Assembly: GCF_011299615.1 (NCBI RefSeq)
Contig: NZ_CP049861.1
Location: 558,001-622,000, forward strand
Reading direction: 5' to 3'
Length of the DNA stretch: 64,000 nucleotides
DNA from: Erysipelothrix sp. HDW6C
GTDB taxonomy: Bacteria; Bacillota_I; Bacilli_A; Erysipelotrichales; Erysipelotrichaceae
Positions 41,629 through 57,147 of the stretch are shown here, piece after piece; the first letter of the stretch is position 1, and each line of letters starts with the position of its first letter. Position numbers and translations under genes: made by a program. The notes below the pieces were generated by a model that ran no database searches, had not been told where the DNA came from, and saw nothing but the letters and a program-made list of their open reading frames with translations.

Positions 41629-42930
41629 ATGAAAAAAAATCCATTATTTTTACTAAATAACAAGCGTCCTGTCGGTGTCTATTCGGCATGTACAGCCAAT
41701 GATCTTGTTATCGAAGCAACACTTGAATTTGCGAAAGAGCACAATTCACCCGTCGTTATTGAAGCAACAGCAAACCAAGTTAACCAATTTGGTGGTTATA
41801 CAGGGATGAAGCCAATTGACTTCAAGAACTTTGTATTTGAACTTGCTGATAAAGTAGGTTATGACAAGAAACGCATTATCTTAGGTGGAGACCACTTAGG
41901 ACCGCTAACATGGACAGACTTAAATGAAGACGAAGCCATGAAGAATGCAGTACAACTTGTTTATGATTATGTTCGTTCAGGATTCACAAAAATCCACTTG
42001 GACACATCAATGCGCGTGGCTGATGACAGCACAAACGAAGCATTATCCAATGAGACCATTGCCCGTCGTTCTGCGATGATGGCAAAGGCATGCTTGGAGG
42101 CATACGATGCACTGCTTGCTGAGGATCCAGAAGCAATCTTCCCAGCATTCATTATTGGTAGTGAAGTTCCAATCCCAGGTGGCGCACAAGAAAAAGAAGA
42201 AACACTGGCAGTTACAAGCCCAGCTGACTTCAAAGAAACATACCGCGTATTCAAAGAAGTATTCGCAGCACATGATGTTGAGAAAGTATTTGACTCCGTA
42301 ATTGGTATTGTTGTTCAACCGGGTGTTGAGTTTGGAGATGAGGACTTGTTCCAATACAACCGTGCGAATGCAAAAGAACTGACCGATACATTAAAGAATG
42401 AGTTTGATTCATTCGTATTTGAAGGACACTCAACAGACTATCAAACACCAGAACATTTAAAAGAGATGGTTGAAGATGGAATCACAATTCTTAAAGTCGG
42501 ACCTGCATTGACATTCGCCCTACGCGAAGCACTCTTTGCACTCTCACACATTGAAGATCAAATTTGTGAACGTCCATCACACTTCATTCAAGTGCTCGAA
42601 GATACGATGTTAGAACACCCAGGCAATTGGCAAAAACACTACCATGGTACTCCAGCAGAACTATGGATTAAACGTAAGTACAGCTACTCAGACCGTGCAC
42701 GTTACTACTTGCCAATTCCAGAGGTCCAAGAAAGCATTAATACATTGGTTGAAAACTTAACAGCAACACCAATTCCAATGACCATGCTCTCACAATACAT
42801 GCCATACCAATACCGTCGCATTAAAGAAGGTATCATTAAAAACAGTCCACTCGACTTAATCAAAGATTATGTCAAACTGTATCTCGATGATTACCAATAT
42901 GCAACGAATGTTCAAAATTTAGAGAAGTAA
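41629..42930 (+). CDS. kbaZ: Tagatose-bisphosphate aldolase, non-catalytic subunit (GatZ/KbaZ)
   Basis: A 433-residue protein of the GatZ/KbaZ family, which supports the class II aldolase GatY/KbaY that splits tagatose-1,6-bisphosphate. The diagnostic N-terminal part holds GVYSACTANDLVIEA, VIEATANQVNQFGGYTGM and ILGGDHLGP. I chose MKKNPLF at 41629 with GAGAGGTGAG upstream. The catalytic aldolase subunit is not in the window. It lies beside the aminosugar PTS and AgaS genes, which fits galactosamine catabolism; kbaZ versus gatZ cannot be told apart from sequence alone. Confidence 0.9.
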   Translation: MKKNPLFLLNNKRPVGVYSACTANDLVIEATLEFAKEHNSPVVIEATANQVNQFGGYTGMKPIDFKNFVFELADKVGYDKKRIILGGDHLGPLTWTDLNEDEAMKNAVQLVYDYVRSGFTKIHLDTSMRVADDSTNEALSNETIARRSAMMAKACLEAYDALLAEDPEAIFPAFIIGSEVPIPGGAQEKEETLAVTSPADFKETYRVFKEVFAAHDVEKVFDSVIGIVVQPGVEFGDEDLFQYNRANAKELTDTLKNEFDSFVFEGHSTDYQTPEHLKEMVEDGITILKVGPALTFALREALFALSHIEDQICERPSHFIQVLEDTMLEHPGNWQKHYHGTPAELWIKRKYSYSDRARYYLPIPEVQESINTLVENLTATPIPMTMLSQYMPYQYRRIKEGIIKNSPLDLIKDYVKLYLDDYQYATNVQNLEK

Positions 42931-42938
42931 ACTTTAGG

Positions 42939-42976
42939 GAGTCAAGTCTATCTTAACGATAAGCTTGACTCTTTTA
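42939..42976 (+). terminator. Aldolase-subunit gene terminator
   Basis: GAGTCAAG/CTTGACTC stem with a smaller inner stem, followed by Ts. Confidence 0.8.
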
Positions 42977-43037
42977 TCTATTTTACATTCAAATCTACAA
43001 TATATAATTGAGAAATAGAGATTGAAAATTAGACAAG

Positions 43038-43066
43038 AAAAAGGCCCGTCCCCAGACGAGCCTTTT
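43038..43066 (-). terminator. PTS operon terminator
   Basis: A GC-rich stem (AAGGCCCGT with ACGAGCCTT, one mismatch) followed on the minus strand by TTTTTCTTG, downstream of the EIID gene. Confidence 0.75.
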
Positions 43067-43100
43067 GTGTATACGTTTAGAAAGGAGAGCTTTGTCTTAC

Positions 43101-44030
43101 TTATTCAGCTTTAGGTGCTTCCGTTGCGTAGTCATACCATTTGAGCAATGGGTTATAACCACCTGGAATTGCTTCCCCTGTTTCAGGGTTTGTTGCTTTT
43201 GAATCACCAGCTAAGATACCTGTTGCAGTACCGAAGATACCGATTACTAAGAGTAATACGATACATTTTGTTGGTGACCAGTTGCGTTTCTTGAGTAAGA
43301 AGTACATCAAGAGTGTTAATGCTAATGGAACTAACTTAGGTAAGATACCATCAAGTGTTTGTTGGATGTTTGTTACCAAACTACCGTTAACAAATGAGAT
43401 ACGGATTGCTGTACCACCGAAGATTGATGTCATCGCACCAACGATAAATACCCCTAAGATACCTGCAGCACGTGTGAACTCTTTAGCATTTTTAGTAAAG
43501 ACATCAATAGCGCTTGCTCCAAGTTTGTATGACATATTCATCAGCCAGAAGCGAAGTACGAATTGTACAACGTTGAAAATTACTAAGAATAGAATAGGTC
43601 CCATGATTTGCTCGTTAATCGCCATATTAGCGGTAATACCAGCTGTGATAGGAACTAATGTCATCCAGAATAACGCATCACCAATACCGCCTAATGGACC
43701 CATGGCAGCAACACGTACCGCACGGATTGTTGGGATATCAGCTTTTTGTTGTTCTAGGTTTAATACGATACCCATAACGAATGTTACTAAGAATGGGTGA
43801 GTGTTAAAGAATTCAAGGTTATGACCCATTGAGGCAGCCAAGTCTTCTTTGTTTGTATGGATCTTTTCAAGTCCAGGTAAGATACCGTATAGCCATCCTG
43901 CTGCTTGCATACGCTCATAGTTAAATGATGCTTGCAAGAAGAGGGAACGCCATACCATTTTGTTTAATGTTTTCTTATCCAGTGGTTTGGCTGGAGTCAG
44001 GTCTTTGTAATGTGTTACGTTAGATTCCAT
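43101..44030 (-). CDS. PTS mannose-family subunit EIID
   Basis: A 309-residue membrane subunit of mannose/fructose/sorbose-family PTS. The markers are SFNYERMQAAGWLYGILPGL, AAMGPLGGIGDALFW and the C-terminal membrane segments. I chose the ATG at 44030 (MESNVTHY) because GGAGGTG is 6 bases upstream; earlier ATGs overlap that site. It overlaps the EIIC gene by 11 bases. In this neighbourhood the sugar is most likely N-acetylgalactosamine or galactosamine. Confidence 0.92.
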   Translation of the reverse strand: MESNVTHYKDLTPAKPLDKKTLNKMVWRSLFLQASFNYERMQAAGWLYGILPGLEKIHTNKEDLAASMGHNLEFFNTHPFLVTFVMGIVLNLEQQKADIPTIRAVRVAAMGPLGGIGDALFWMTLVPITAGITANMAINEQIMGPILFLVIFNVVQFVLRFWLMNMSYKLGASAIDVFTKNAKEFTRAAGILGVFIVGAMTSIFGGTAIRISFVNGSLVTNIQQTLDGILPKLVPLALTLLMYFLLKKRNWSPTKCIVLLLVIGIFGTATGILAGDSKATNPETGEAIPGGYNPLLKWYDYATEAPKAE

Positions 44031-44829
44031 CTTCATCACCTCCACCGAAGTTACCGCCCGTTAAGCCGGACATTTTTGTATTCATTTGGAAATCGTAAAT
44101 GGCAATTGCGCCACCGATCATTGAAAGAATTAAGAGTGCTGCTCCACCAAGTCCTGGAACCATATTTACAATTGTTGCAAATGCGAATCCAAGGAAGTAG
44201 AAGCCCCATAGTTCTCCCGATAACATAATTTTCATTAAGATACCGAAACCAACATATTTCATCATACCACCAGCAACATCAAGTCCAGCCATTAACCAGC
44301 TAAGGTTATAGGATGCTTTTGCAAGTTGATCACCGATAAGTTGTCCTGATAACATTCCAACTAAGATGATAACTGCGAACAATGAGCCAAGAATAGCCAT
44401 TGATAAGTAGTTGATTTGTGCAATACCTTTAGGGTTAGCATTTTTTGCATGTTTGTCAGCAACAGCCATGATTGGTGACATTAAAGTAAATGTCAATGTA
44501 ACAGCATATTGTCCAAGTAAAGCAAATGGAACTGCTAATCCAACAGCAGTATTAGGAGCCATATTTGATGAGACAGCAAATACAGTAGCCATAATACCAC
44601 CGATAATGACGTTAGGTGGTTGAGCTCCACCTACAGGCATACTACCGATTGAAATCAATTGGTAGGTTCCCCCGACGATCATCCCTGTACCAGGTGCGCC
44701 TAGAATTGCTCCAACAACAGTACAGAGTACGATTGGTTGGTACAGTGATTCTAAGAAACTAAACTGGTCAATCGCGGCAATAAATGTCACGATCATAACT
44801 AGGATAATCTGAATGATTGTAAAATCCAT
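44020..44829 (-). CDS. PTS mannose-family subunit EIIC
   Basis: A 269-residue polytopic EIIC. It has the family segments SIGSMPVGGAQPPNVIIGG and VGLAVPFALLGQYA and about seven to eight membrane helices. I chose MDFTIIQ at 44829 with AGGAGG 10 bases upstream; the earlier ATG at 44838 is almost inside that site. It follows EIIB by about 20 bases and overlaps EIID. Confidence 0.92.
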   Translation of the reverse strand: MDFTIIQIILVMIVTFIAAIDQFSFLESLYQPIVLCTVVGAILGAPGTGMIVGGTYQLISIGSMPVGGAQPPNVIIGGIMATVFAVSSNMAPNTAVGLAVPFALLGQYAVTLTFTLMSPIMAVADKHAKNANPKGIAQINYLSMAILGSLFAVIILVGMLSGQLIGDQLAKASYNLSWLMAGLDVAGGMMKYVGFGILMKIMLSGELWGFYFLGFAFATIVNMVPGLGGAALLILSMIGGAIAIYDFQMNTKMSGLTGGNFGGGDEDGI

Positions 44830-44850
44830 GTGATTCATTCCTCCTATATA

Positions 44851-45327
44851 TTATTTGAAGAGCTTTTCAATGTCCTCAGAAGCATTTTGCGGAACACGAC
44901 GAATTTCTAATTCGACTCCGAGATCTCTGAGTTTTTTGAACGCTGCGACATCTTTGTCATCAACAGCAACAGAGGTAGCGACCTGGCGTTTTCCTTCCGC
45001 CATGTGCATATTACCAATATTTACCTTTTTGATGGGTACTCCACCTTCAACAAGTTTTAGTACGTCTTCTGGTGTTTCACAAATGATAAAAATCATTTGA
45101 CGATCAGATGCCTTGTGAATTGTTTCGATTGTTTTTTGGATTGTCCAATAACGAGTTTGAGCATAACCTGGAGCGGCCATGTCCATTAATCCCTGACGCA
45201 TTTTATTGCCAGCGACCTCATCATTTGCAACTAACAGTAAGTTTGCTCCAACGACCCCTGACCATTGAGTAGCGACTTGTCCATGAATCAAACGATTATC
45301 AATTCGTGTTAATACAATATTTGGCAT
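44851..45327 (-). CDS. PTS mannose-family subunit EIIB
   Basis: A 158-residue cytosolic phosphocarrier. The phosphorylated His is H15 in RIDNRLIHGQVATQW. The GGVPIKKVNIGNMH segment is typical, and among family members it resembles the N-acetylgalactosamine type (AgaV) in my judgement. AAAGGAGAG lies upstream of the ATG. First gene of the EIIB-EIIC-EIID unit, with a CcpA-like palindrome at its promoter. Confidence 0.92.
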   Translation of the reverse strand: MPNIVLTRIDNRLIHGQVATQWSGVVGANLLLVANDEVAGNKMRQGLMDMAAPGYAQTRYWTIQKTIETIHKASDRQMIFIICETPEDVLKLVEGGVPIKKVNIGNMHMAEGKRQVATSVAVDDKDVAAFKKLRDLGVELEIRRVPQNASEDIEKLFK

Positions 45328-45358
45328 ACGAGTTCTCTCCTTTCTGAACTATAAGAGA

Positions 45359-45382
45359 TGTAAGCGCTCTTACATTATTATA
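45359..45382 (-). promoter_or_regulatory. EIIB promoter -10 with CcpA-like palindrome
   Basis: TATAAT on the minus strand (45377-45382) is followed at the expected start by TGTAAGCGCTCTTACA (45359-45374). This palindrome resembles a catabolite-responsive element but has two extra bases compared with the 14-base consensus. It suggests repression by CcpA when glucose is present. Confidence 0.55.
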
Positions 45383-45431
45383 ATATCGCAATAGAAATCA
45401 TAATGATTTGCATTATTTTACACGATATTTG

Positions 45432-45488
45432 CACTTTTGCGTAATGGAAGCAAAAGTGGTTGTGAAAAATGACAATCTTGAATATGAT
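45432..45488 (+). promoter_or_regulatory. AraC-gene promoter with upstream inverted repeat
   Basis: TTGTGA (45460-45465) and TATGAT (45483-45488) are 17 bp apart. Just upstream lies a perfect inverted repeat, CACTTTTGC (45432-45440) and GCAAAAGTG (45450-45458), with a 9-base spacer. It could be an operator shared by the divergent PTS operon and the regulator gene. Confidence 0.55.
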
Positions 45489-45513
45489 ACAATTATAAAA
45501 AGGAGGATTCGTT

Positions 45514-46704
45514 ATGTACCTAAAAACAACCAGTCCGCAGTTTCTGAAATATGGAAGTATTGCGGAAGAACCTTCCCGATATCTCTCACAACGAACTTAT
45601 TTTGAAGGGAAAAACCCAACACATTTGGATGTGTATGATGCGAAAGTAAGAATTGAAGTTCTCGAAGGAATTGCCATCCTTGTATTGCAAGAGGAGTTTG
45701 GAAGTCGCGAACAATTTGTAATTCATCGTGCACCAATTCTAAACAAAAATACACCATTTACTGTCATTCCCTTAACGCAAAGTGCAGTTATTGAGGTGTC
45801 AGTCCAGTCAAAGAAAGCTGTGAAGCAAAGCCGTATTGAATTTGAAGATGAACTTAACTATGAACCCATCCGTCCCAAGTTCTCAGTCACTGATATTTAT
45901 TCATACTACTATAATGTAAAAGGGAAAGATTACTACTTTCATGGGGAGTCTCACTATAATTGGGAACTTACGTATGTTGACACAGGGGAACTTGTGACTG
46001 AGATTGATGGTCAAGAATATACTTTAAGCAGTCAACAAATGATGTTGTACTTTCCGGGACAATTTCATAAGCAATACGTTATTGGTGAAAAAACAGCGTC
46101 CTACCTAACCATTATGTTTGATATGAACATTCGCTCTGCAGACGTGCAGCACATGAAGAATAAGGTTTTTGATTGTACGACCGAATTGTATCAATTGACC
46201 GATAAGTTTATTCGTCATTCTACTATAATGGAAGAGCAGAATGTGCCCTATGCACGTGATCTGATGGTTTCTTACTTACAGGAAATTATCATCCACCTAA
46301 TTCAGTATGATAGTCCTAAGAATGATCAACACAGTCTTTCCAATCCCATTCAAGCAAACTTTGAGAATGAGTTGATGAATGAGATTAATAATTATATTCA
46401 ACGTAATATCTTTGAACCCATATCAGTTGAGGACATTTGTGATCAGTTCTCAATCAGTCGCTCAACACTTCAGGGTTTGTTTAAGAAGAACTTGAACATG
46501 CCACCAAAGCAGTACATCAATGAATTAAAGATGTCGAAAGCACAGCATATGATTCTAGAAGAAAAGTATCCAATTACTGAAATTGCATTAAAACTTGGAT
46601 TCAGTTCAATTCACTATTTCTCACGCAAATTCAAAAAAAGATACGGGCTTGCTCCCAGTGAGTTCTCACAATCCATATACAAAGATACCAATGCCGATAT
46701 ATAA
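45514..46704 (+). CDS. AraC-family transcriptional regulator
   Basis: A 396-residue regulator. The middle region (about 140-230) has a cupin-like pattern, HYNWELTYVDTGELVTEIDG and MMLYFPGQFHKQYV, for ligand sensing. The C-terminal 100 residues contain two helix-turn-helix units (ISVEDICDQFSISRSTLQGL and ITEIALKLGFSSIHYFSRKF). AAAGGAGG lies upstream of the ATG. It is divergent from the EIIB-EIIC-EIID genes and convergent with the YajC-EIIA-AgaS genes, so it is the likely local activator of both. Confidence 0.92.
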   Translation: MYLKTTSPQFLKYGSIAEEPSRYLSQRTYFEGKNPTHLDVYDAKVRIEVLEGIAILVLQEEFGSREQFVIHRAPILNKNTPFTVIPLTQSAVIEVSVQSKKAVKQSRIEFEDELNYEPIRPKFSVTDIYSYYYNVKGKDYYFHGESHYNWELTYVDTGELVTEIDGQEYTLSSQQMMLYFPGQFHKQYVIGEKTASYLTIMFDMNIRSADVQHMKNKVFDCTTELYQLTDKFIRHSTIMEEQNVPYARDLMVSYLQEIIIHLIQYDSPKNDQHSLSNPIQANFENELMNEINNYIQRNIFEPISVEDICDQFSISRSTLQGLFKKNLNMPPKQYINELKMSKAQHMILEEKYPITEIALKLGFSSIHYFSRKFKKRYGLAPSEFSQSIYKDTNADI

Positions 46705-46740
46705 AAATAAGCTCCGCAATTGAACCCGCGGAGCTTTGTG

Positions 46741-47031
46741 TTACTTATCAATGATGTTTGAAATACTATAGACGGCAACTTCAACGACGGTGTTGTCATT
46801 GAGTTTCACCTTAGCAAAGATATTATCGCTATCTTTGTTTACCAGAGTCCCAATCAGTCCTCCAGCAAAGACGATACGCATACCAGGCTTCAAGTCATTG
46901 AATAGTTCTGGCATTCTTTCGCGTTGTTTCTTAATGTTACGAGCAGTTGTGACATAATAGATAATCGCAAAGATCGCTACTAAGAATCCAACGGTAAGAC
47001 ATGTATAGAGTACTACTGATAGTGGTGTCAT
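46741..47031 (-). CDS. YajC-like protein of a PTS operon
   Basis: A 96-residue protein with one N-terminal membrane helix (VVLYTCLTVGFLVAIFAIIYYV), RNIKKQRERMPEL, then a YajC-type beta domain with LKPGMRIVFAGGLIGT. It is distinct from the housekeeping secretion subunit by its place behind EIIA and AgaS. YajC paralogues in glycan-PTS operons are known in streptococci. Its role there is unclear. Confidence 0.85.
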   Translation of the reverse strand: MTPLSVVLYTCLTVGFLVAIFAIIYYVTTARNIKKQRERMPELFNDLKPGMRIVFAGGLIGTLVNKDSDNIFAKVKLNDNTVVEVAVYSISNIIDK

Positions 47032-47051
47032 ATTAAGTGTCCTTTCTGAGA

Positions 47052-47486
47052 CTAGATTCCGTCTCCATCAAAATCATCATTTGTGTCAACTTCTTCTAAG
47101 CTGAAGAAGTCTACTTGAGAAGCCCCTGTTTCGGCGAGTGAGCGTGTGAATGGTATAACTTCAACATCTCCCATACGCATCAAGCTTGCTTCCAAGAGCA
47201 TTGCTAAGTTTGTTCCTGTAAGAACTTCAATATTGTCAATTTGTGTTGTGATCATTGCTGCTTCCTTAAAGGGTGTTCCACCTTTTAAGTCTGTGAAGAT
47301 AATGACGCCGTCGCCTTTATCAACATTCGCAATCGCTGCACGCAAGTCAAGACCCAATTGTTCGGGTGTCTTTTCTTGTAAGAATGTGACAACTTCGTAT
47401 TGTTCTTGTTTTCCTGCAATCAATTCAACTGCGGATGTAAGTCCTTCTCCGAAGTTACCGTGACCTGTTACAATAATTCCAATCAT
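47052..47486 (-). CDS. PTS mannose-family subunit EIIA
   Basis: A 144-residue EIIA with the phospho-His H9 in MIGIIVTGHGNFGEGL, and the FTDLKGGTPFKEA and VLTGTNLAMLLEA motifs. The start MIGIIV at 47486 shares one base with the AgaS stop (TAATG), with GGAGG upstream. A longer frame reading into the AgaS gene is not real. The C-terminus is unusually acidic (DTNDDFDGDGI). It phosphorylates the EIIB encoded in the divergent unit. Confidence 0.92.
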   Translation of the reverse strand: MIGIIVTGHGNFGEGLTSAVELIAGKQEQYEVVTFLQEKTPEQLGLDLRAAIANVDKGDGVIIFTDLKGGTPFKEAAMITTQIDNIEVLTGTNLAMLLEASLMRMGDVEVIPFTRSLAETGASQVDFFSLEEVDTNDDFDGDGI

Positions 47487-48661
47487 TACTTTGCCTCCTT
47501 GTATGAGTATGGGTAGATAATGACACCTTGAACAACACGGTTTACAAGACCTGATGGCCATGGGTTGTCGGGAGTCTTACCTAAATCGATGGATTTATAA
47601 AGTGACATTGCTTGTGCATACATCACCATGTTTAAACCAACGAAATCAGTGTTTACACTCTTATTATAGTTAATCACGTGGTAGACATCAACAAGTGCTG
47701 CGATGGAATCGTCTTGTTTTAAGTCAACAACCATAATTTGGTTGCCATCACGTTGTCCACTCATCTCTTTGATAAGATCAATTTGGTACTTACGTACATA
47801 GTCTGATTCTTTCATATAGATAACAGTTAGTGTTTTTGAGTTAACAATTGATTTTGGCCCATGACGGAATCCAAGCGGTGAATTATGCATTGTAACAACT
47901 TCACCTGCCGTAAGTTCCAACATTTTAAGTGCACTCTCTTGTGCAAACCCATTAAGGTCAGCGTCACCCAAGTAAACGATACGTTCAAATTTAAAATCAT
48001 TAACAAGCTTTTCAATTACTTTATAGTCGCTTGTATTGAATTCGCTACCTACGCGGATAAGTTCTGCAATAGCATCTGCGTGTGTATCCAAAGTATCAAT
48101 ATTGAATGCCAAGTATGCTGCTAAGAACATGTTTGAGAAACTACTTGTCATCGCAAATGATTGGTCATTTGTTTCTTTAGGTAACTTAATTGCATAGGTG
48201 TGGTCATCTTCGCGTAAAGCAAGTTTTCCTTCGTGGTTGCATGTAATAATAAGGTGCTTTGTATTTGGGTTTACAATCGATGCAACATCAACTGCTGCGA
48301 TTGATTCTGGAGAGTTTCCAGAACGACCGAATGAAACAAGCAATGTAGGTTTCTTTGGATCGATGTACAATTCAGGTGTTACAACAATGTTTGTTGTTGC
48401 GATTGATTTAAAGTTTGAATTAATATTTTTAACAAGCACGGGTGCAAGTGAATTACCGACGAATTCAGAGGTTCCTGCTCCTGTAAAGATAACATCGTAC
48501 TCTTTATTTCCTGTAACTTGTTCGATAAACGCTTTAATTTCTGCGCGTTTTTCTTTTATAATTTCGAATGTCTTACCCCATGTCGTTGGTTGTTGCGATA
48601 TTTCATTGGCTGTATGGAAAGCGGTAAGTGATTCCCAGTGAGCTTTGTCTTGATTAAACAT
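47486..48661 (-). CDS. agaS: AgaS-type sugar isomerase/deaminase (SIS domains)
   Basis: A 391-residue protein with two SIS domains. The N-terminal FTGAGTSEFVGNSLAPVL and LVSFGRSGNSPESIAAV motifs bind the phosphosugar. AgaS converts galactosamine-6-phosphate to tagatose-6-phosphate with release of ammonia. The gene heads the AgaS-EIIA-YajC unit. On the minus strand a promoter TTGAGG - 17 bp - TATAAT lies upstream (about 48700-48730). The aga deacetylase (AgaA) is not nearby, so NagA or another enzyme may serve. Confidence 0.9.
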   Translation of the reverse strand: MFNQDKAHWESLTAFHTANEISQQPTTWGKTFEIIKEKRAEIKAFIEQVTGNKEYDVIFTGAGTSEFVGNSLAPVLVKNINSNFKSIATTNIVVTPELYIDPKKPTLLVSFGRSGNSPESIAAVDVASIVNPNTKHLIITCNHEGKLALREDDHTYAIKLPKETNDQSFAMTSSFSNMFLAAYLAFNIDTLDTHADAIAELIRVGSEFNTSDYKVIEKLVNDFKFERIVYLGDADLNGFAQESALKMLELTAGEVVTMHNSPLGFRHGPKSIVNSKTLTVIYMKESDYVRKYQIDLIKEMSGQRDGNQIMVVDLKQDDSIAALVDVYHVINYNKSVNTDFVGLNMVMYAQAMSLYKSIDLGKTPDNPWPSGLVNRVVQGVIIYPYSYKEAK

Positions 48662-48842
48662 TTATATGTTCTCCGTTTCTAGTTTCTTCCTCATTATCAT
48701 TATAGGTAGAGATTTGGGGGTCCTCAACCGAATTGGTTAAAGGTGCAAAAAGTGTACCGAAAAAGACAAATAGGGGACTGTAAGTGAAATTGAATATGCG
48801 ATACAATAGAGTTAATAAGAGAATCGTATAAGGAGAGAAATC

Positions 48843-49295
48843 ATGAAAAAGACCCAAGAGAAGACATTTGTAGATTTCATTAACAAAAAGACATACCGTG
48901 TTCCAAAATCCAAAGAAACCTTACTTGGTGTCTATCAAAATCGGTATGCCATTATACTGGCAGTTTGTGTATTGCTCGAAGGTTTTATCTTTGGTTTATG
49001 GCCAACACTCTTCTTTGCTCTCGTAACAGTCGTATTCACAGAATATGTATACCGTTCACGATTCTTAAAGTCATTGACAGTTATTCCAACAGAAACGGTT
49101 ACGAAGAAAGAGATCAACAAACAAGCAACAATCATGAATTGTTTACTTTACCTCGCTTTGGGTATTGGTCTTATCTACTATGCCCTGGGAGAACCCCATC
49201 CTGATACACAAAAGATTTTACTTTTAGCCATCGGTGCAGGAACCTTGGGTGTTGGCATCACATACGTCACCAAACTTTTTACTAAAAATGCATAG
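48843..49295 (+). CDS. Hypothetical membrane protein
   Basis: A 150-residue protein with about four hydrophobic segments: two after a 35-residue cytoplasmic N-terminus (MKKTQEKTFVDF) and two near the C-terminus. AAGGAGAG precedes the ATG. It lies divergent to agaS and is followed by a terminator. I do not recognise it, and a link with sugar use is only positional. Confidence 0.7.
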   Translation: MKKTQEKTFVDFINKKTYRVPKSKETLLGVYQNRYAIILAVCVLLEGFIFGLWPTLFFALVTVVFTEYVYRSRFLKSLTVIPTETVTKKEINKQATIMNCLLYLALGIGLIYYALGEPHPDTQKILLLAIGAGTLGVGITYVTKLFTKNA

Positions 49296-49308
49296 ATAGA
49301 TTTCCAAG

Positions 49309-49332
49309 AGATGTCACATGACATCTTTTTTT
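49309..49332 (+). terminator. Intrinsic terminator
   Basis: AGATGTCA/TGACATCT stem and a run of seven Ts. Confidence 0.8.
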
Positions 49333-49454
49333 AGGAATGTTTTTATGATGCTCATACTTAACTGTAGGAGGGCAGATTGAAAGGAAATTAAGATAGAGAG
49401 GAGTAATATCTGATTTCCCCAGATTGTGCAATCTGCACCCTAAAGGAGAAAACT

Positions 49455-49556
49455 ATGAAAAAAATTTCAATCATGGAAGGAGTAGCAATAAAGATGTCGA
49501 AGGTGGTACTATTAATGATTTCTAGAGGGCAACAGATACGCCCTGTGAGAAGATAA
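49455..49556 (+). CDS. Possible 33-residue cationic peptide gene
   Basis: ATG at 49455 follows an excellent AAAGGAG at normal spacing. The frame encodes 33 residues: MKKISIMEGVAIKMSKVVLL, then MISRGQQIRPVRR. One base separates its TAA from the next ATG. It is amphipathic with a hydrophobic middle and a strongly basic end. No match is recognised. A short inverted repeat (CAGATTG/CAATCTG, about 49420-49436) lies just upstream. Confidence 0.4.
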   Translation: MKKISIMEGVAIKMSKVVLLMISRGQQIRPVRR

Positions 49557-49557
49557 A

Positions 49558-49812
49558 ATGCGTCAGAAAAAGAGATCAATATCAAAAAATATAATAATCA
49601 AAGAAGCTATTATTATTTACATCGCTGCAGCGATACTTTATCCCTTAGAAAAAACTGATTTTCATCAAACGCTAATAAGGAGTTCACTCATGAAAGAAAT
49701 GATTGTCGGTATATTTTCATTTGCAATTTCACTCATTTTGACAAAATTGATGTTAAGAAAATTCTGCAAGATTGAACATATTCTACAATCAAACAGTGAG
49801 AATAATGAGTAA
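49558..49812 (+). CDS. Small hypothetical membrane protein
   Basis: An 84-residue product with a basic start (MRQKKRSISK), two hydrophobic helices (IIIYIAAAILYPL and MIVGIFSFAISLIL) and a polar tail. It starts 1 base after the 33-codon frame, so the two are probably co-translated. Its own RBS is weak (GAGAAG), which supports coupling. No family recognised. Confidence 0.55.
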   Translation: MRQKKRSISKNIIIKEAIIIYIAAAILYPLEKTDFHQTLIRSSLMKEMIVGIFSFAISLILTKLMLRKFCKIEHILQSNSENNE

Positions 49813-49916
49813 TTCAATGGGCACAATCCGTGCCTTTTTCTTTTGTGTGCATTATTTAAGAATTGTCAACATTCAATGAATTGTGTAAGTGCAGTATTGA
49901 TTTATGCAAATCATTC

Positions 49917-49956
49917 TTGACAGAAAACCTTTAGACTGAAAATGTAAGCGTGTACA
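49917..49956 (+). promoter_or_regulatory. Promoter and CcpA site of the GH31 gene
   Basis: TTGACA at 49917-49922 is followed by a weak -10 region. TGTAAGCGTGTACA (49943-49956) matches the catabolite-responsive-element consensus TGWNANCGNTNWCA at all but one position and overlaps the -10/start region. This predicts glucose repression of the surface glycosidase gene. Confidence 0.75.
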
Positions 49957-49974
49957 TACGCAAAAGGAGAAAGA

Positions 49975-52900
49975 ATGAAAAAATTTAGTGTTTTAGTTCT
50001 AAGTTTACTCATGGCTTTGACTCTGATGAGTCCGGCGATGCATACTCCCGTTTACGCAGACGAGGAGCCAGCAACTGAAAAGCCTCGCGTCGATGCGACT
50101 GGATATGAAATACTGGGTTCTGTCGAAAATGTTGAAGTTCAAGGAACAGATGTTATCTTGACTTTAAGCGATGGAAATAGAACAAAGCTTTCATTTCTAA
50201 CTGATAATTTATTCCGCTATTATGTTGATATTGAGGATACAGAGTTCCTAAAGTATCCCAAGCCAAATAGCAACGATCATAAAGCAACCATTCTTGCTAA
50301 AGAAGAATCTGACTTTATTAGCGAAAGTGGTGTTGTCATTACGGTTGATGAAGGGGAAGTCATTAAAATCTCAACAGCCAAGATTGTTGTAACAATCGAA
50401 AAAGCGACATCGCTCTTAACAGTGCGACGCATTGATGGATCGATTGTAATGCAAGAAGCAGCGCCATTAATGTACAAGGGCAATGAAACGGTTCAGTCTT
50501 TGGTGGAACATGATGATGAGTACTTTTATGGTGGTGGAACGCAAAATGGACGTTTTTCACATAAGGGAGAAATCGTTAAAGCTGTAAACACAAATAACTG
50601 GGTTGATGGTGGGGTCGCAAGTCCAAACCCATTCTACTGGACAACGAAGGGGTATGGGATTGTTCGCAATACCTTTAAGCCGGGTGAGTATGACTTTGGT
50701 AAGACGAGTCCTGGTGTTGTCTCTGCAACCCATAATGAAGCACGTTATGATGCGTATATTTTTGTAGGAGATAATCCAGAAGCATTGTTGAATGCTTATA
50801 CAGACCTTACGGGGAAACCAGCACAACAACCTGATTATGCGTTTTATTTGGGCCATTTAAACTGCTACAACCGCGATGTTTGGAAAGAGACGGGTTCGGC
50901 TAGTGGGAAACTCATTGATGGAAAGTACTATTCCGAGCGTAACCCAAGTTCTGGAGAAATCCAACCGGGTGAAGTACAAGAATCCTTAATGGAAAAGAAT
51001 GGAAACTTACCATTCACCGCACAACGTCAAATTGAAATTCATGAAGAGAAAGATATTCCACTGGGGTCCTTTTATCCCAACGATGGTTATGGTTGTGGAT
51101 ACGGTCAAACTGATTCCTTTGATGGTGATATTGAAGAATTAAAGGCATTTACTGATTTTGCGAACAGCAAAGGAATTGAAACGGGTCTTTGGACACAAGC
51201 AAACCTATGGCCACGCGATATCAACAATCCTCAAAAGGGAGAACGTGATATCCAACGTGAAGTTCAAGATGCTGGCGTTCGTGCGATTAAAACGGACGTT
51301 GCATGGGTAGGTGCGGGTTATTCAATGGCATTGAATGGTGTCATGCGTGGATACGAAGCAATCACTGAACTGGCAGGAACAAAAGCAATGATTGTTTCCT
51401 TGGATGGTTGGGCAGGAACCCAACGCTATGCAGGGATTTGGTCGGGTGACCAAACAGGAGGAAACTGGGAATACATTCGTTTCCATATCCCAACATACAT
51501 TGGTACCGGTCTTTCAGGAATGCCCAATGTTGGAAGTGACATGGATGGAATTTTCGGAGGGAAAAATCCTGTAATTCAAACCCGTGACTTCCAATGGAAA
51601 GCCTTCACACCGTACATGCTTGATATGGATGGTTGGGGTTCATCACAAAAGAATCCATGGGAGTTTGGGGAAGATACGACATCAATCAACCGTGCATACC
51701 TTAAGTTGAAAGCAGAAATGATGCCTTATGTTGCAACGATTTCTGCACAATCAGCAAAAACTGGGATGCCGATGGTTCGCGCGATGTTCTTGGAGTATCC
51801 GGATTCCTACACACATTCGAAAGCAACCCAATATCAATACATGTGGGGAAGTTCTTTCTTGGTTGCTCCAATCTACCAAAATACCAATGCAAATGCTCAA
51901 GGGGATGATATCCGTAACGATATTTACCTTCCCGATGCTGAACAAATTTGGATTGACTATTTCACTGGCGATCAATACCGTGGTGGATCTGTTTTAAATA
52001 ATTTTGAAGCCCCAATTTGGAAAACACCGGTCTTCGTCAAGAATGGTGCAATTATTCCAATGTATGCTGAAAACAACAACCCACGTGCTAAAGATGCAAA
52101 CAATCCAAAGGGTCTGGATAAATCAGAACGGATTGTTGAGTTCTATCCACAGGGTGAAACATCATTTGATCTCTACGAAGATGATGGCATCACAGATGGC
52201 GGTGCATCGACAACGACACGTATAACCTCTGTTGTTGACGGAGAAAAGGCCACACTTTCAATTGATAAAACGCTTGGAAGTTATCCAGGCATGATCTCAC
52301 AACGTAGCACTGAAATGATTGTTAATGTCTCTGCTGCACCAAAAGGTGTCAAAGGGAATGTTGGCGGAAGTGATGTTGTCTTTACGGAAGCAACGTCGCG
52401 TGAAGACTACGATAAAACAAGTGGCAATGTATACTTCTACGATGAAACACCTGTTTCAATCATCAGTAAATATGCATCAGAAGGTTCGACCTATGACACC
52501 GCCCCACTTACAACACGTCCAAAACTTTATATCAAATCTGCGGATACATTCGACATCACAGCGACAAATTATTCTGTAGTTGTTGATGGCTTCAAAAATG
52601 AGCAAGAAGTTTCACCCAACGAACTCGTTGAGACACTTGCTGTTCCTCAAAACTTAGCATCACCAGAACAAACACCGTCTTCAATTACATTGGAATGGGA
52701 CCGTGTTGCCGAAGCACAAACCTATGATGTTGAAGTTGATGGAACGGTATTCTCAAACATCTTAAGCAATGACTATCTCAGTTTGGGATTGCACTATGAT
52801 ACAGATTATACATATCGTGTTCGCACGGTAACATCTGAAGGACACTCAAATTGGAGTGATGCACTGGTTGTTCGTACAGCACTTGATCCGTATCGCAATG

Positions 52901-55900
52901 TTCCTGTCGGAATGACAGCCGAGTGGAGTGGTGATGGATCGTATGGCGGTACAAAACCTGAATATGTTGTAGATGGTGATGATGCAACACACTTCCACTC
53001 AAAAGATGGTGGCGATGCATACACAAATACATTCACCATTGACATGCAAAAGAGTTACGAACTGGAAAAACTCGAATATATGCCACGTCCTGATTTTGGA
53101 AATGGAACAATTCGTGAGTTCACACTCGACTACAGCCTTGATGGTCAACACTGGAAAAAAGCAGTGACTGTAGGTACTGATGTTCCTGCTTGGTCATACA
53201 AAGTAGGCGATACAATCAAGACGCTAAATTTTGATACGCATATCAAAGCGCGCTATATTCGCTTCTCTGTTACAAATTCTGTAGGTGGGTTCTTCACGGC
53301 TCATGAAATTAGACCGTATGCAGTGGATGCAAGTCGTGGTCAAATTGTCGGAGACTGGAACAACAGTGGTGACATTGATCAAGGCGATCTCACATTCTTT
53401 GAAAACTATGCGGGTCTGCGTCGTGAAGATGCCGATTTCGGTGGTTATGTTGAAGCTTCCGACCTCAACTTTGATGGGGTCATTGATGGATATGACATTG
53501 CTTATGTTGCGCGTCTAATGAATGGTGGCATCAAAGCCGGTAATAAGGATGTCCAAGGAAAGATGTTCATCGTACCTTCGAAAGAACATGCCGAAATAGG
53601 TGAAGAAGTAACGTACACAGTTTACGGTTTGGGTATGGAAAATGTCTATGCGCTCAATCTTGAAGTGCCATATGACATAGATGAGCGAGATTTTGTATCC
53701 AATTCAAGTGCAGTGCTGACGCAATTCATGACAAGCTTCAGTAAGAGTCGTACACATTCGGATAACTCGCGTGCAAATTATCTTATCTTTACAAATGTTG
53801 GCCAACAACCCCTGATTGATGGAACAGGTGTAATCGGTTCTTTCAAGATGGTACAAAAAGTAAGTGGACCAACAGAAATTGGTGTCATGAAGGCAAACTT
53901 TGTGGGTGATAACCTCAGTGTTGTCGATGCACTGGAATCGAGTGTTGAACCACCACTGCCAAGTACTGAAAGTAAACTTGCTTTAAGTGACATTAAAAAT
54001 ATGACATTCACAAATGATATTCTAACCACGGATGATGGAACCAACGGTACGAAACTGTGGCAACAATCCAATTATGCAGAAATATTATTTGATGGGAAAA
54101 TGGGCGATCTTGCGGAATTCAAATGGAAGATGCCAGATTCGGATATTGCCGATTATGTAAAACTTCCAACGACCATGACATTTGAACTCACCAAGGATCA
54201 ACCAGTGTCGAAGGTGCGTGTTCACAACCGTGCTAAGAATGCAAACGGTAGTGTAACGGCAATGAGTGCGAAAGCGTATCATGGTGATACTGTTTATGAC
54301 TTGGGTGTTATTCAAGATTTCAAAGCAATTTACGAATGGGAGTTACCTGCAGGAGTTCTTGTTGACCGTGTCGAGGTAGTGGCATTGAGTGCATCAGGAA
54401 TGGCTACAGGAACCACATCGGGTACTGTTGAAAATCGTATGTTGTCATTGACAGAAATTGATATCATTACCAATGTTGGTGCTGCAGTGGAAAGCGTCGC
54501 CTTTGTGGAACTTTTCCCAGAAACAATTGGATTGGAATCATTGAAGGAAATTAAAGCAGTTGTGAATCCATCCAATGCAATTAATCCATTTTATGATCTG
54601 GTCTCTAGCGATCCGGAAATTGCCCAAATTACTCGGGTAACAACGGAAGCGGGCTATACATACTTTGTAACTGGAAAACGCGAAGGTACCGTAACCATTA
54701 CGGCAACAGCTCGTGGTGATAATAGCATCACGACATCACGTGAATTATCGGTAACAAATAAATTGGATACATCATTGCTTGAAAAAGCACTTCAGGATAC
54801 AGAAGGGCTCTATGAGACACTCTATACACCTGAGACATACACTGCAGTGATAGAGGCCCGAACTGAAGCGTTGTTGGTTATGGAGAATCCACTATCAAGT
54901 GCGCAAATTGATGAAGCAACAATCAAGTTAAACATTGCCTTGAGCAAGTTAAAACTCAAAGGGTCAAATATAGACCAACCTGAAAGTACGAATCTCATTG
55001 ATTCAAATACACTGAGCGTTGTATCGTTTACATCTCAAGCGGATACAGACTATGCATTGAATACAATTGATGGGGATGAGGAAACAATCTGGCATACAAG
55101 CTATCAATCCAGTGCAAGCCTTCCTGTTGAGATAGTTTATGATCTTCATGCTACCTATGCGGTAGAGCAACTCAATTTCTTACCCAATACACGCAACCGT
55201 AATGGTGATGTTGTGCGTTATCGTATTGAAGTAAGTATGGATGGGGAAACATTTACCCCTGTAGTTGAAGACACGCTTGCTTATGATAATAGTGGTTTGG
55301 TCAATCGTTCAAGCTACAAAGTTTCGAAATTTGATAAGGTCAATGCTCGATATGTTAAATTCATTGCCTTAGAATCCCTTGGCAGTAGTTCAACAATCGC
55401 GCAAATGAACCGTTATGCATCGATTGCGGAAGTGAAACTCTTCGGAGTCCTTCAAGAAGACGTTACGCCAATTGAGTCCATCACATTTGCAGAAGAAGCA
55501 ATCACACTCTATATTGGTGATGAAAATCATCCAGTATACGAAGTGACTCCACTCGGAGCTAATGAAAAACTTGTGTGGTCAACGGATGATGCATCGATTG
55601 CACAAGTTGTGGATGGCAAAGTAACTGCAGTTGCTGCTGGGTCAACAACAATTCATGTCAAAGCCAAAGGAAGCGACGTGAGTGCAAGTTTAAATGTAAC
55701 AGTTAAAGCCATTGATATTGACGGGCTTCGCAGTCTGAGTGTACAAGTCACAAGTACGCTAAACAATGATGCGTTCATGGAGACAGTACACGCTGTTCTC
55801 AAAGATGCACTCGTGGCAAGCAACGACGTAGCAGTCGCGTTGCTTGCTCGATTTGATGAGACACCAGAACTTGTCACGAGTGAGGAAATCGTCGCTGCAT

Positions 55901-57147
55901 TTACAGCACTCCAAAGCGCGAATGCAAATCTTGAATACCGTCTTGTGATAAATGAACTTGTTGAGTTGGTAAACCTAGACCTTGGAAACTATGACCAAGG
56001 AACAATTGCAGATTATCAAGTACTGCAAACTCAAGGACAAACACTCCTTGACGATTTAGCCAATAATCTTGAAAATGTTGCGGAAATGGTGACTCAACTC
56101 AAAGAGGCGAAGGATACACTTGTCGACTTAGACAAACAACCTCTACGTGCCCTCGTTGCAACCGTGAAAGCCATGGATTTGGATATCTATACTGAGGCAA
56201 CGAGAAATGAAGCAGTCATTGCATTAACAGCAGCAGAAACAGTCCTTGATTCGGCAACAACCAATCAAGAACTTGTCGATGCGCTGGATCAACTTCAAAC
56301 GAAGGTTTCAGCACTTGTACGACGTATGAGCGCAACACAACTCGAAACTATTGAAGCATACAAAGCAATGATTGATGGTGTTGATCTCAGCAAGTATCAA
56401 TCAGCTACAGCTGATAGCATTGTTGCAATGGCTCAACGTGTGACATCGTTCTTAGATGGAACTGAACGTACAGAAGCTGAAGCAACTGCATTTATTGTTG
56501 AGATTCAAGACTTTAAGAGTGTGATTGATAATCCAGACTTGGAAGTTGACGTCGTCGACCGTACTGCTCTTGAGCAAAAAGTTGCAGAAGTTAAGGCGTT
56601 GGATGGTACAAAATATACTGAGGTAAGTTGGAATGCATTGCAAGAAGCGCTTCAAACTGCACAACGTGTGTTGTTGAATGCGGATGCAACGCAAGCAGAC
56701 ATTAATGCTCAGGTAACAAGTCTTGAAAGAGCGATTCAGGCTCTTGTCATAAAAACTGATGAATCTGGTGTTGTAGAAGGATTCAAAGGATTACCAGGAG
56801 AAATTCGTGTTGGAGATAAATTCACACTTTATCCTGAAAAAGATGATCATCAAGGTCGCAATGGATGGACCTTTGACGAAACATTCTTTGCAGCAACCTT
56901 CAATTCGCCAGCAACCTTTGTTGCCCTGAAAGAAGGTACTACAGAGATTAAGTACACGTCACAAGATGGTTCAGTCCAACGTGTCGTTGTAAACATTCAA
57001 AAAGCGTTACCCAAAGATACAAATGGTGGAACACTTGTACAAACAGGTGTAGCCAATAATGTAATGCCAATCGTGATCGCTTTAAGCGCCATCACAGGTG
57101 GTATTTACTTAGTCATCGCATCAAAAAGAAAGAAGCGATATAACTAA
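49975..57147 (+). CDS. Giant cell-wall GH31 glycosidase, probable alpha-N-acetylgalactosaminidase
   Basis: 2390 residues. Signal peptide 1-28. The GH31 catalytic part (about 170-770) has likely nucleophile D441 (AIKTDVAWVG) and acid/base D492 (GIWSGDQTGG). Then, approximately: FN3 880-965, CBM32-like 975-1110, a dockerin-like unit 1125-1185 (GDWNNSGDIDQGDL, DLNFDGVIDGYD), a cohesin-like domain 1190-1320, a carbohydrate-binding-like domain 1330-1500, BIG2 1505-1600, FIVAR, CBM32 about 1672-1820, BIG2 about 1832-1915, FIVAR-type helical repeats to about 2260 and a beta domain. The end is LVQTG (2354-2358), a helix and a basic tail. The catalytic sequence resembles GH31 alpha-GalNAc enzymes from memory, and the neighbouring PTS/AgaS genes agree. 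AAAGGAG precedes the ATG. Confidence 0.88.
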   Translation: MKKFSVLVLSLLMALTLMSPAMHTPVYADEEPATEKPRVDATGYEILGSVENVEVQGTDVILTLSDGNRTKLSFLTDNLFRYYVDIEDTEFLKYPKPNSNDHKATILAKEESDFISESGVVITVDEGEVIKISTAKIVVTIEKATSLLTVRRIDGSIVMQEAAPLMYKGNETVQSLVEHDDEYFYGGGTQNGRFSHKGEIVKAVNTNNWVDGGVASPNPFYWTTKGYGIVRNTFKPGEYDFGKTSPGVVSATHNEARYDAYIFVGDNPEALLNAYTDLTGKPAQQPDYAFYLGHLNCYNRDVWKETGSASGKLIDGKYYSERNPSSGEIQPGEVQESLMEKNGNLPFTAQRQIEIHEEKDIPLGSFYPNDGYGCGYGQTDSFDGDIEELKAFTDFANSKGIETGLWTQANLWPRDINNPQKGERDIQREVQDAGVRAIKTDVAWVGAGYSMALNGVMRGYEAITELAGTKAMIVSLDGWAGTQRYAGIWSGDQTGGNWEYIRFHIPTYIGTGLSGMPNVGSDMDGIFGGKNPVIQTRDFQWKAFTPYMLDMDGWGSSQKNPWEFGEDTTSINRAYLKLKAEMMPYVATISAQSAKTGMPMVRAMFLEYPDSYTHSKATQYQYMWGSSFLVAPIYQNTNANAQGDDIRNDIYLPDAEQIWIDYFTGDQYRGGSVLNNFEAPIWKTPVFVKNGAIIPMYAENNNPRAKDANNPKGLDKSERIVEFYPQGETSFDLYEDDGITDGGASTTTRITSVVDGEKATLSIDKTLGSYPGMISQRSTEMIVNVSAAPKGVKGNVGGSDVVFTEATSREDYDKTSGNVYFYDETPVSIISKYASEGSTYDTAPLTTRPKLYIKSADTFDITATNYSVVVDGFKNEQEVSPNELVETLAVPQNLASPEQTPSSITLEWDRVAEAQTYDVEVDGTVFSNILSNDYLSLGLHYDTDYTYRVRTVTSEGHSNWSDALVVRTALDPYRNVPVGMTAEWSGDGSYGGTKPEYVVDGDDATHFHSKDGGDAYTNTFTIDMQKSYELEKLEYMPRPDFGNGTIREFTLDYSLDGQHWKKAVTVGTDVPAWSYKVGDTIKTLNFDTHIKARYIRFSVTNSVGGFFTAHEIRPYAVDASRGQIVGDWNNSGDIDQGDLTFFENYAGLRREDADFGGYVEASDLNFDGVIDGYDIAYVARLMNGGIKAGNKDVQGKMFIVPSKEHAEIGEEVTYTVYGLGMENVYALNLEVPYDIDERDFVSNSSAVLTQFMTSFSKSRTHSDNSRANYLIFTNVGQQPLIDGTGVIGSFKMVQKVSGPTEIGVMKANFVGDNLSVVDALESSVEPPLPSTESKLALSDIKNMTFTNDILTTDDGTNGTKLWQQSNYAEILFDGKMGDLAEFKWKMPDSDIADYVKLPTTMTFELTKDQPVSKVRVHNRAKNANGSVTAMSAKAYHGDTVYDLGVIQDFKAIYEWELPAGVLVDRVEVVALSASGMATGTTSGTVENRMLSLTEIDIITNVGAAVESVAFVELFPETIGLESLKEIKAVVNPSNAINPFYDLVSSDPEIAQITRVTTEAGYTYFVTGKREGTVTITATARGDNSITTSRELSVTNKLDTSLLEKALQDTEGLYETLYTPETYTAVIEARTEALLVMENPLSSAQIDEATIKLNIALSKLKLKGSNIDQPESTNLIDSNTLSVVSFTSQADTDYALNTIDGDEETIWHTSYQSSASLPVEIVYDLHATYAVEQLNFLPNTRNRNGDVVRYRIEVSMDGETFTPVVEDTLAYDNSGLVNRSSYKVSKFDKVNARYVKFIALESLGSSSTIAQMNRYASIAEVKLFGVLQEDVTPIESITFAEEAITLYIGDENHPVYEVTPLGANEKLVWSTDDASIAQVVDGKVTAVAAGSTTIHVKAKGSDVSASLNVTVKAIDIDGLRSLSVQVTSTLNNDAFMETVHAVLKDALVASNDVAVALLARFDETPELVTSEEIVAAFTALQSANANLEYRLVINELVELVNLDLGNYDQGTIADYQVLQTQGQTLLDDLANNLENVAEMVTQLKEAKDTLVDLDKQPLRALVATVKAMDLDIYTEATRNEAVIALTAAETVLDSATTNQELVDALDQLQTKVSALVRRMSATQLETIEAYKAMIDGVDLSKYQSATADSIVAMAQRVTSFLDGTERTEAEATAFIVEIQDFKSVIDNPDLEVDVVDRTALEQKVAEVKALDGTKYTEVSWNALQEALQTAQRVLLNADATQADINAQVTSLERAIQALVIKTDESGVVEGFKGLPGEIRVGDKFTLYPEKDDHQGRNGWTFDETFFAATFNSPATFVALKEGTTEIKYTSQDGSVQRVVVNIQKALPKDTNGGTLVQTGVANNVMPIVIALSAITGGIYLVIASKRKKRYN

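What the first reader, a model, noticed from the sequence alone, without database searches (positions are those of the whole stretch)
41629..57147. Surface-to-cytoplasm galactosamine module built around a giant wall-anchored GH31 enzyme
A 2390-residue sortase-anchored GH31 protein lies beside an AgaS-type deaminase/isomerase, mannose-family PTS EIIA/B/C/D, a YajC-like protein, an AraC regulator and a GatZ/KbaZ subunit. Catabolite-type sites lie at two of the promoters. Seen directly: gene order and motifs. From family knowledge: AgaS and KbaZ act in galactosamine/tagatose-6-phosphate breakdown. Inference: the GH31 enzyme cleaves alpha-linked GalNAc from mucin or blood-group-type glycans and the PTS imports it.
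Basis: partly seen in the sequence, partly recalled or inferred. Interest (0 to 1): 0.7.

Follow-up and report, generated by a model that had tools for sequence, protein, structure and literature searches.

The report
Mucin-sugar harvesting enzyme and uptake genes
This stretch carries a giant surface enzyme that very probably strips N-acetylgalactosamine from mucin-type proteins, beside the genes that import and break down that sugar; each part is of a known kind, but a shared promoter motif ties them to distant genes and suggests one control system that can be tested.

Summary
In detail: gene order, families and the 2390-aa GH31 protein are as described. The enzyme belongs to subfamily GH31_18: 920 bits to the solved Enterococcus faecalis alpha-GalNAcase against 137 to any other GH31, nucleophile kept, one compact clade. 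Adjacency is a weaker argument than it looks: the AgaS-PTS-AraC locus is conserved in the genus without GH31, and two sister species carry GH31 elsewhere. But GH31_18 joined the same kind of PTS independently in Clostridium and Enterococcus caccae. A 21-bp-period direct repeat at the PTS promoter has 7 matches (up to 1 mismatch) in the 2.36-Mb genome; the four outside genes lie before the PTS, the GH31, the only nagA, and a distant galactosamine-PTS operon. In both sister species the unlinked GH31 carries the repeat too. Best reading: an amino-galactose regulon, probably driven by the local AraC protein, harvesting GalNAc from mucin-type glycoproteins. Gaps: no clear KbaY or tagatose-6-P kinase, anchor motif LVQTG, no experiment.

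The parts
49975..57147 (+). Secreted, wall-anchored GH31_18 alpha-N-acetylgalactosaminidase, 2390 aa, Sec signal peptide at the N end
50185..52326 (+). GH31 catalytic module (residues 71-784); nucleophile Asp441 at 51295-51297
   Evidence: Pfam; aligned to the residue changed in 7f7q (A) and 7f7r (N)
52645..53301 (+). Fibronectin III domain and first CBM32 (residues 891-1109)
   Evidence: 4LPL match E 1.5e-35
53350..53928 (+). Dockerin (residues 1126-1182) followed directly by a cohesin fold (about 1194-1318)
   Evidence: Pfam Dockerin_1; AlphaFold model pLDDT 88, Foldseek best hits are cohesins; conserved across the subfamily
54112..54390 (+). Weak match to CpGH31 CBM32-2 (4UAP)
   Evidence: E 0.02
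54994..55446 (+). CBM32 like CpGH31 CBM32-3 (4LKS), residues 1674-1824
   Evidence: E 3.5e-30
55474..56745 (+). Big_2 (residues 1834-1899) and helical/FIVAR stalk
57034..57144 (+). Cell-wall sorting signal, non-canonical LVQTG
49883..49911 (+). 21-bp-period direct repeat GTGTAAGT-N13-ATGCAAAT in the GH31 promoter (putative AraC operator)
49942..49957 (.). cre-like palindrome ATGTAAGCGTGTACAT close to the GH31 start
48843..49295 (+). 150-aa membrane ORF, conserved beside agaS in the genus, no family
47486..48661 (-). AgaS-type sugar-phosphate deaminase/isomerase
   Evidence: TIGR02815 406 bits (cut-off 529), 38% identity to E. coli AgaS
48743..48771 (+). Weaker copy of the direct repeat before agaS
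47052..47486 (-). PTS EIIA (AgaF-type)
   Evidence: NF040761 137.3 bits, cut-off 130
46741..47031 (-). YajC-like membrane protein of the PTS cluster
   Evidence: TIGR00739 44.9 bits, cut-off 44.2
45514..46704 (+). AraC-family regulator (cupin plus HTH), candidate regulon activator
45406..45434 (-). Direct repeat GTGCAAAT-N13-ATGCAAAT, exact match, in the EIIB/AraC intergenic region
45359..45374 (.). cre-like palindrome TGTAAGCGCTCTTACA before EIIB, conserved in most of the genus
44851..45327 (-). PTS EIIB (AgaV-type)
   Evidence: NF008508 214 bits, cut-off 180; 54% identity to E. coli AgaV
44020..44838 (-). PTS EIIC
   Evidence: best model AgaW 195 bits (cut-off 300)
43101..44045 (-). PTS EIID
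   Evidence: best model AgaE 304 bits (cut-off 500)
41629..42930 (+). KbaZ/GatZ-like tagatose-bisphosphate aldolase non-catalytic subunit
   Evidence: PF08013 E 1.6e-169, 44% identity to E. coli KbaZ

Best explanation
The locus is the core of an amino-galactose harvesting regulon. A Sec-exported, wall-held GH31_18 enzyme, guided by GalNAc/galactose-binding CBM32 modules, hydrolyses the alpha bond between the core GalNAc and the peptide of mucin-type glycoproteins. Free GalNAc is taken up and phosphorylated at C6 by the EIIABCD mannose-family PTS, deacetylated by the unlinked NagA, deaminated and isomerised by AgaS to tagatose-6-phosphate, and passed to a kinase and a class II aldolase helped by KbaZ. 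The local AraC-family protein probably binds a 21-bp-period direct repeat before the PTS, the GH31 gene, nagA and a second, galactosamine-type PTS, and cre-like sites make expression glucose-sensitive. Shown by sequence: enzyme subfamily, gene content, the repeat and its genome-wide distribution. Inferred: substrates, AraC as the binder, direction of control, the last two catabolic steps.
For: Catalytic module 919.9 bits to 6m76/7f7r/7f7q (GH31 alpha-GalNAcase), next best GH31 136.6. Nucleophile kept. Tree puts it in a compact clade with Akkermansia, Bacteroides and Enterococcus members, far from YicI and YihQ. EIIB and EIIA pass GalNAc-PTS equivalog cut-offs; EIIC and EIID score AgaW/AgaE best. 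Independent linkage: Clostridium cluster EIIDCB-AraC-YajC-EIIA-NagA-GH31-GntR-AgaS-KbaY-KbaZ, and E. caccae amidohydrolase-GH31-EIIABCD-GntR-AgaS. Direct repeat: 7 genome hits at up to 1 mismatch, 4 intergenic, before EIIBCD, GH31, nagA and an operon that passes the AgaB/AgaC/AgaD galactosamine-PTS cut-offs. Window count 2 against 0.21 expected. Sister species with GH31 at an unlinked site keep the repeat and a cre-like site there. The genome also has a GH101 module of endo-alpha-GalNAcase type.
Against: The GH31-PTS adjacency is absent in the sister species and in all other family genomes examined. The nagA repeat is not conserved in sister species. AgaS, EIIC, EIID and KbaZ fall below NCBIfam equivalog cut-offs. 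None of the four class II aldolases reaches the KbaY cut-off, and none of the six PfkB-family kinases scanned reaches the LacC cut-off. One characterised GH31_18 enzyme cut pNP-alpha-GalNAc but no native substrate tried (PMC13096917). Binding of the repeat by this AraC protein is unproven.
Confidence: 0.8

Rival explanations
1. The PTS imports unsaturated glycosaminoglycan disaccharides, as AgaVWEF-like PTSs with a YajC-like protein do in streptococci (own knowledge), and the GH31 neighbour is unrelated.
For: Mannose-family EII subunits for hexosamine and GAG sugars look alike; a YajC-like gene is present.
Against: The genome has a separate PTS directly beside its only GH88 gene at C1:645-648 kb that scores below the GalNAc equivalog cut-offs. 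The window PTS sits with AgaS in all eight other species examined, and with KbaZ in seven of them (the eighth contig ends there), not with GH88 or lyases.
Confidence: 0.08
2. The adjacency is accidental: GH31 landed beside a core galactosamine PTS locus, and the two are not functionally coupled.
For: The PTS locus is genus-wide without GH31; GH31 is variable and sits after pnp in sister species; most GH31_18 loci examined lack PTS neighbours.
Against: The shared direct repeat persists in the GH31 promoter of sister species where the genes are unlinked. Linkage is seen on three separate branches of the tree.
Confidence: 0.1
3. The GH31 enzyme acts mainly on terminal alpha-GalNAc of blood-group-A type glycans.
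For: Same anomeric bond; CBM32 modules of the C. perfringens relative bind galactose and GalNAc (PMC5291390).
Against: Characterised GH31_18 enzymes are inactive on blood group A and act on peptide-linked core GalNAc (PMC11790493, PMC11992087, PMC13096917).
Confidence: 0.05

Closest known systems
EfNag31A of Enterococcus faecalis (PDB 6m76, 6m77, 7f7q, 7f7r), GH31_18 alpha-GalNAcase
   Same: Homologous over the whole GH31-FN3 part (938 residues, 920 bits), same nucleophile, surface anchored
   Different: Window protein is compared here only over the solved construct; it goes on with CBM32s, a dockerin-cohesin pair and a FIVAR stalk
CpGH31 (CPF_1301) of Clostridium perfringens (PMC5291390)
   Same: GH31, FN3, CBM32-1, cohesin, CBM32-2, CBM32-3, Big_2 in the same order; both clear CBM32 stretches match its solved CBM32s
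   Different: Window protein has a recognisable dockerin directly before the cohesin and a C-terminal sorting signal; neither is in the published module map
E. coli AgaVWEF/AgaBCD, AgaS, KbaYZ pathway and the streptococcal/enterococcal aga pathway (PMC4694137)
   Same: Same steps: PTS uptake, deacetylation, AgaS, tagatose route
   Different: Known regulators there are AgaR proteins; here an AraC-family gene is divergent from EIIBCD, nagA is unlinked, and no clear KbaY is seen
Hoskinsella mucinilytica GH31_18 and Akkermansia Amuc_1008 (PMC13096917, PMC11790493)
   Same: Same subfamily, mucin-related alpha-GalNAcase
   Different: No PTS link described in the passages read; Hoskinsella enzyme reported as constitutively expressed

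Membership tests
GH31 subfamily 18 | Sequence clusters with characterised GH31_18, apart from other GH31 | tested here: met
   920 versus 137 bits; tree
GH31 subfamily 18 | Catalytic nucleophile Asp in TDVAWVG | tested here: met
   Asp441; invariant in 15 relatives
GH31 subfamily 18 | alpha-GalNAcase activity | not testable with these tools
   needs enzyme assay
GalNAc-specific PTS (AgaVWEF) | EIIB and EIIA reach NCBIfam equivalog cut-offs | tested here: met
   214/180 and 137/130 bits; EIIB also passes the galactosamine model (197/180)
GalNAc-specific PTS (AgaVWEF) | EIIC and EIID reach equivalog cut-offs | tested here: not met
   195/300 and 304/500 bits; AgaW and AgaE are still the best models
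AgaS family TIGR02815 | Curated cut-off 529 bits | tested here: not met
   406 bits over the full length; 38% identity to E. coli AgaS; homologue, specificity inferred
KbaYZ aldolase | KbaZ/GatZ subunit present | tested here: met
   PF08013 E 1.6e-169; below the TIGR02810 equivalog cut-off, 502/569
KbaYZ aldolase | KbaY catalytic partner in genome | tested here: not met
   four class II aldolases, best 262 bits against cut-off 443
Sortase substrate | LPXTG, hydrophobic stretch, basic tail | tested here: inconclusive
   LVQTG instead of LPXTG, the rest present; one sortase in genome
AraC-type operator | Two direct half-sites one 21-bp period apart before target promoters | tested here: met
   binding itself not testable
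cre site/CcpA control | cre palindrome at promoter | tested here: inconclusive
   present and conserved at two promoters, counts close to chance; CcpA gene not searched

The most novel reading that the evidence does not exclude
An AraC-family activator, in place of the known AgaR repressors, runs a dispersed amino-galactose regulon: surface O-glycanase, GalNAc PTS, galactosamine PTS and the shared nagA. The surface enzyme gene changes place within the genus but keeps the operator.
Probability: 0.55. Interest if true: 0.5.

Novelty: new member of a known kind. Interest (0 to 1): 0.42.

Why it matters
It gives a nearly complete, testable gene-to-sugar hypothesis for how a Gram-positive bacterium of this family strips core GalNAc from mucin-type glycoproteins and uses it. 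It names one regulator, one operator sequence and four target promoters. It also shows how to tell functional coupling from chance adjacency: the operator goes with the enzyme gene even where the genes are far apart.

Tried and rejected
Alpha-glucosidase or xylosidase identity: rejected by scores and tree. Adjacency as proof of coupling: rejected, not conserved. GAG-disaccharide PTS: unlikely, a separate GH88-linked PTS exists. KbaZ promoter as a regulon member: no repeat found in this genome. Repeat in the Clostridium promoters: not found. The position-weight matrix built from six sites was too loose to rank single hits (coding hits of 13-20 bits), so the strict consensus count is used instead. 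The organism's name was not established beyond the family Erysipelotrichaceae, inferred from named family members.
Full report
What is there. From left to right: KbaZ/GatZ-like (41629-42930 +), EIID, EIIC, EIIB (-), AraC family (+), a YajC-like protein, EIIA, an AgaS-family SIS protein (-), a small membrane ORF (+) and the 2390-aa GH31 protein (49975-57147 +). The next gene is a mutY-type glycosylase. The window lies at 558001-622000 of a 2.36-Mb single-contig genome. Named relatives in the same family are Erysipelotrichaceae; the species name was not established.

The enzyme. The catalytic part matches the Enterococcus faecalis GH31 alpha-N-acetylgalactosaminidase at 920 bits over 938 residues. 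The next GH31 structure, maltase-glucoamylase, scores 137 bits. The aspartate changed in 7f7q and 7f7r is Asp441 here and is invariant in an alignment of 15 relatives. A maximum-likelihood tree with E. coli YicI and YihQ as distant rows places it in one compact group with Akkermansia, Bacteroides, Streptococcus, Enterococcus and Clostridium members. It is the only GH31 of the genome. Published work states that GH31_18 contains only alpha-GalNAc-active enzymes (PMC13096917), that they remove GalNAc linked to peptide (PMC11790493), and that the Bacteroides and Enterococcus enzymes do not cut blood group A (PMC11992087).

Modules. FN3, CBM32, dockerin, cohesin fold, a weak CBM32-2-like stretch, CBM32-3, Big_2 and FIVAR follow. 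The order is that of C. perfringens CpGH31, whose three CBM32s bind GalNAc (PMC5291390). The dockerin is followed directly by a cohesin fold in the same chain (AlphaFold pLDDT 88, best Foldseek hits cohesins). This block is found in nearly all of the 80 GH31_18 loci fetched, Bacteroidota included. The sorting signal reads LVQTG; the sister orthologs have LPATG and LPETG.

The uptake genes. EIIB and EIIA pass GalNAc-PTS equivalog cut-offs; EIIC and EIID do not, but AgaW and AgaE are their best models. A second PTS at C1:23.8-26.0 kb passes the galactosamine cut-offs for all three subunits, with 66, 57 and 67% identity to E. coli AgaB, AgaC and AgaD. Within the genus it is found only in this genome. 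A third PTS lies beside the genome's only GH88, which makes a glycosaminoglycan role for the window PTS unlikely.

Is the neighbourhood meaningful? Alone, not much. In eight other species of the genus the AgaS-EIIA-(YajC)-AraC-EIIBCD locus is present without GH31 beside it. In two sister species a 73-74% identical GH31 sits after pnp, and another short gene fills the place between the small membrane ORF and mutY. None of the other 22 family genomes with GH31_18 has these genes in the 17-20 kb or more fetched around it. Yet GH31_18 stands with this PTS elsewhere: two Clostridium genomes with EIIDCB-AraC-YajC-EIIA-NagA-GH31-GntR-AgaS-KbaY-KbaZ (the NagA, GntR and KbaY names were tested in one or both), and Enterococcus caccae. 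These lie on separate branches of the tree.

The regulon. Aligning the EIIB/AraC intergenic region across the genus showed a conserved cre-like palindrome and a direct repeat RTGYAAAT-N13-RTGYAAAT. The consensus was written after seeing the EIIB and GH31 promoters, so those two hits are not blind; the others are. At up to one mismatch the whole genome has 7 hits (control pattern: 2). Three lie inside genes. The four intergenic hits lie before EIIBCD, GH31, nagA and the galactosamine-PTS operon. In the window the count is 2 against 0.21 expected. Sister species G179 and G186 have 5 and 4 hits; in each, two of them are EIIB and the unlinked GH31. agaS has a weaker copy at a constant place. The nagA copy is not conserved in sister species, so it is the weakest member. 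The AraC gene divergent from EIIB is the natural candidate binder; this is inference.

Pathway gaps. nagA is single and unlinked. Four class II aldolases exist, none reaching the KbaY cut-off, and none of the six PfkB-family kinases scanned (of eight) reaches the LacC cut-off. In Clostridium a true KbaY sits next to KbaZ. The genome also encodes a GH101 module, which fits mucin-type O-glycans as food.

Verdict. A well-supported member of known families, with a new and testable regulatory hypothesis. Interest 0.42.

Noticed in passing
53350-53928: A dockerin directly followed by a cohesin fold in the same chain, conserved in nearly all GH31_18 loci examined, including Bacteroidota and Akkermansia. 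Whether the two bind each other or bridge molecules is unknown.
   Followed up: partly
L236:840-2958 (G000 C1:23840-25958): agaBCD-like galactosamine PTS operon with the same direct repeat, found only in this genome of the genus.
   Followed up: yes
L248 (G000 C1:520831-521703): GH101 module in a 1899-aa open frame, an endo-alpha-GalNAcase family.
   Followed up: no
46741-47031: YajC-like gene in the PTS cluster, also in the Clostridium clusters; the role of a YajC-like protein in a PTS operon is unclear.
   Followed up: no
48843-49295: 150-aa membrane protein without family, conserved divergently beside agaS in seven other species of the genus.
   Followed up: partly
10591-16371: 1926-aa collagen-binding/SpaA-repeat wall protein with LPGAG anchor; another SpaA protein at 30500-32284 with LPSTG.
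   Followed up: no
74-2830: 918-aa wall-anchored ORF (LPGTG) without Pfam match, possibly cut by the window start.
   Followed up: no
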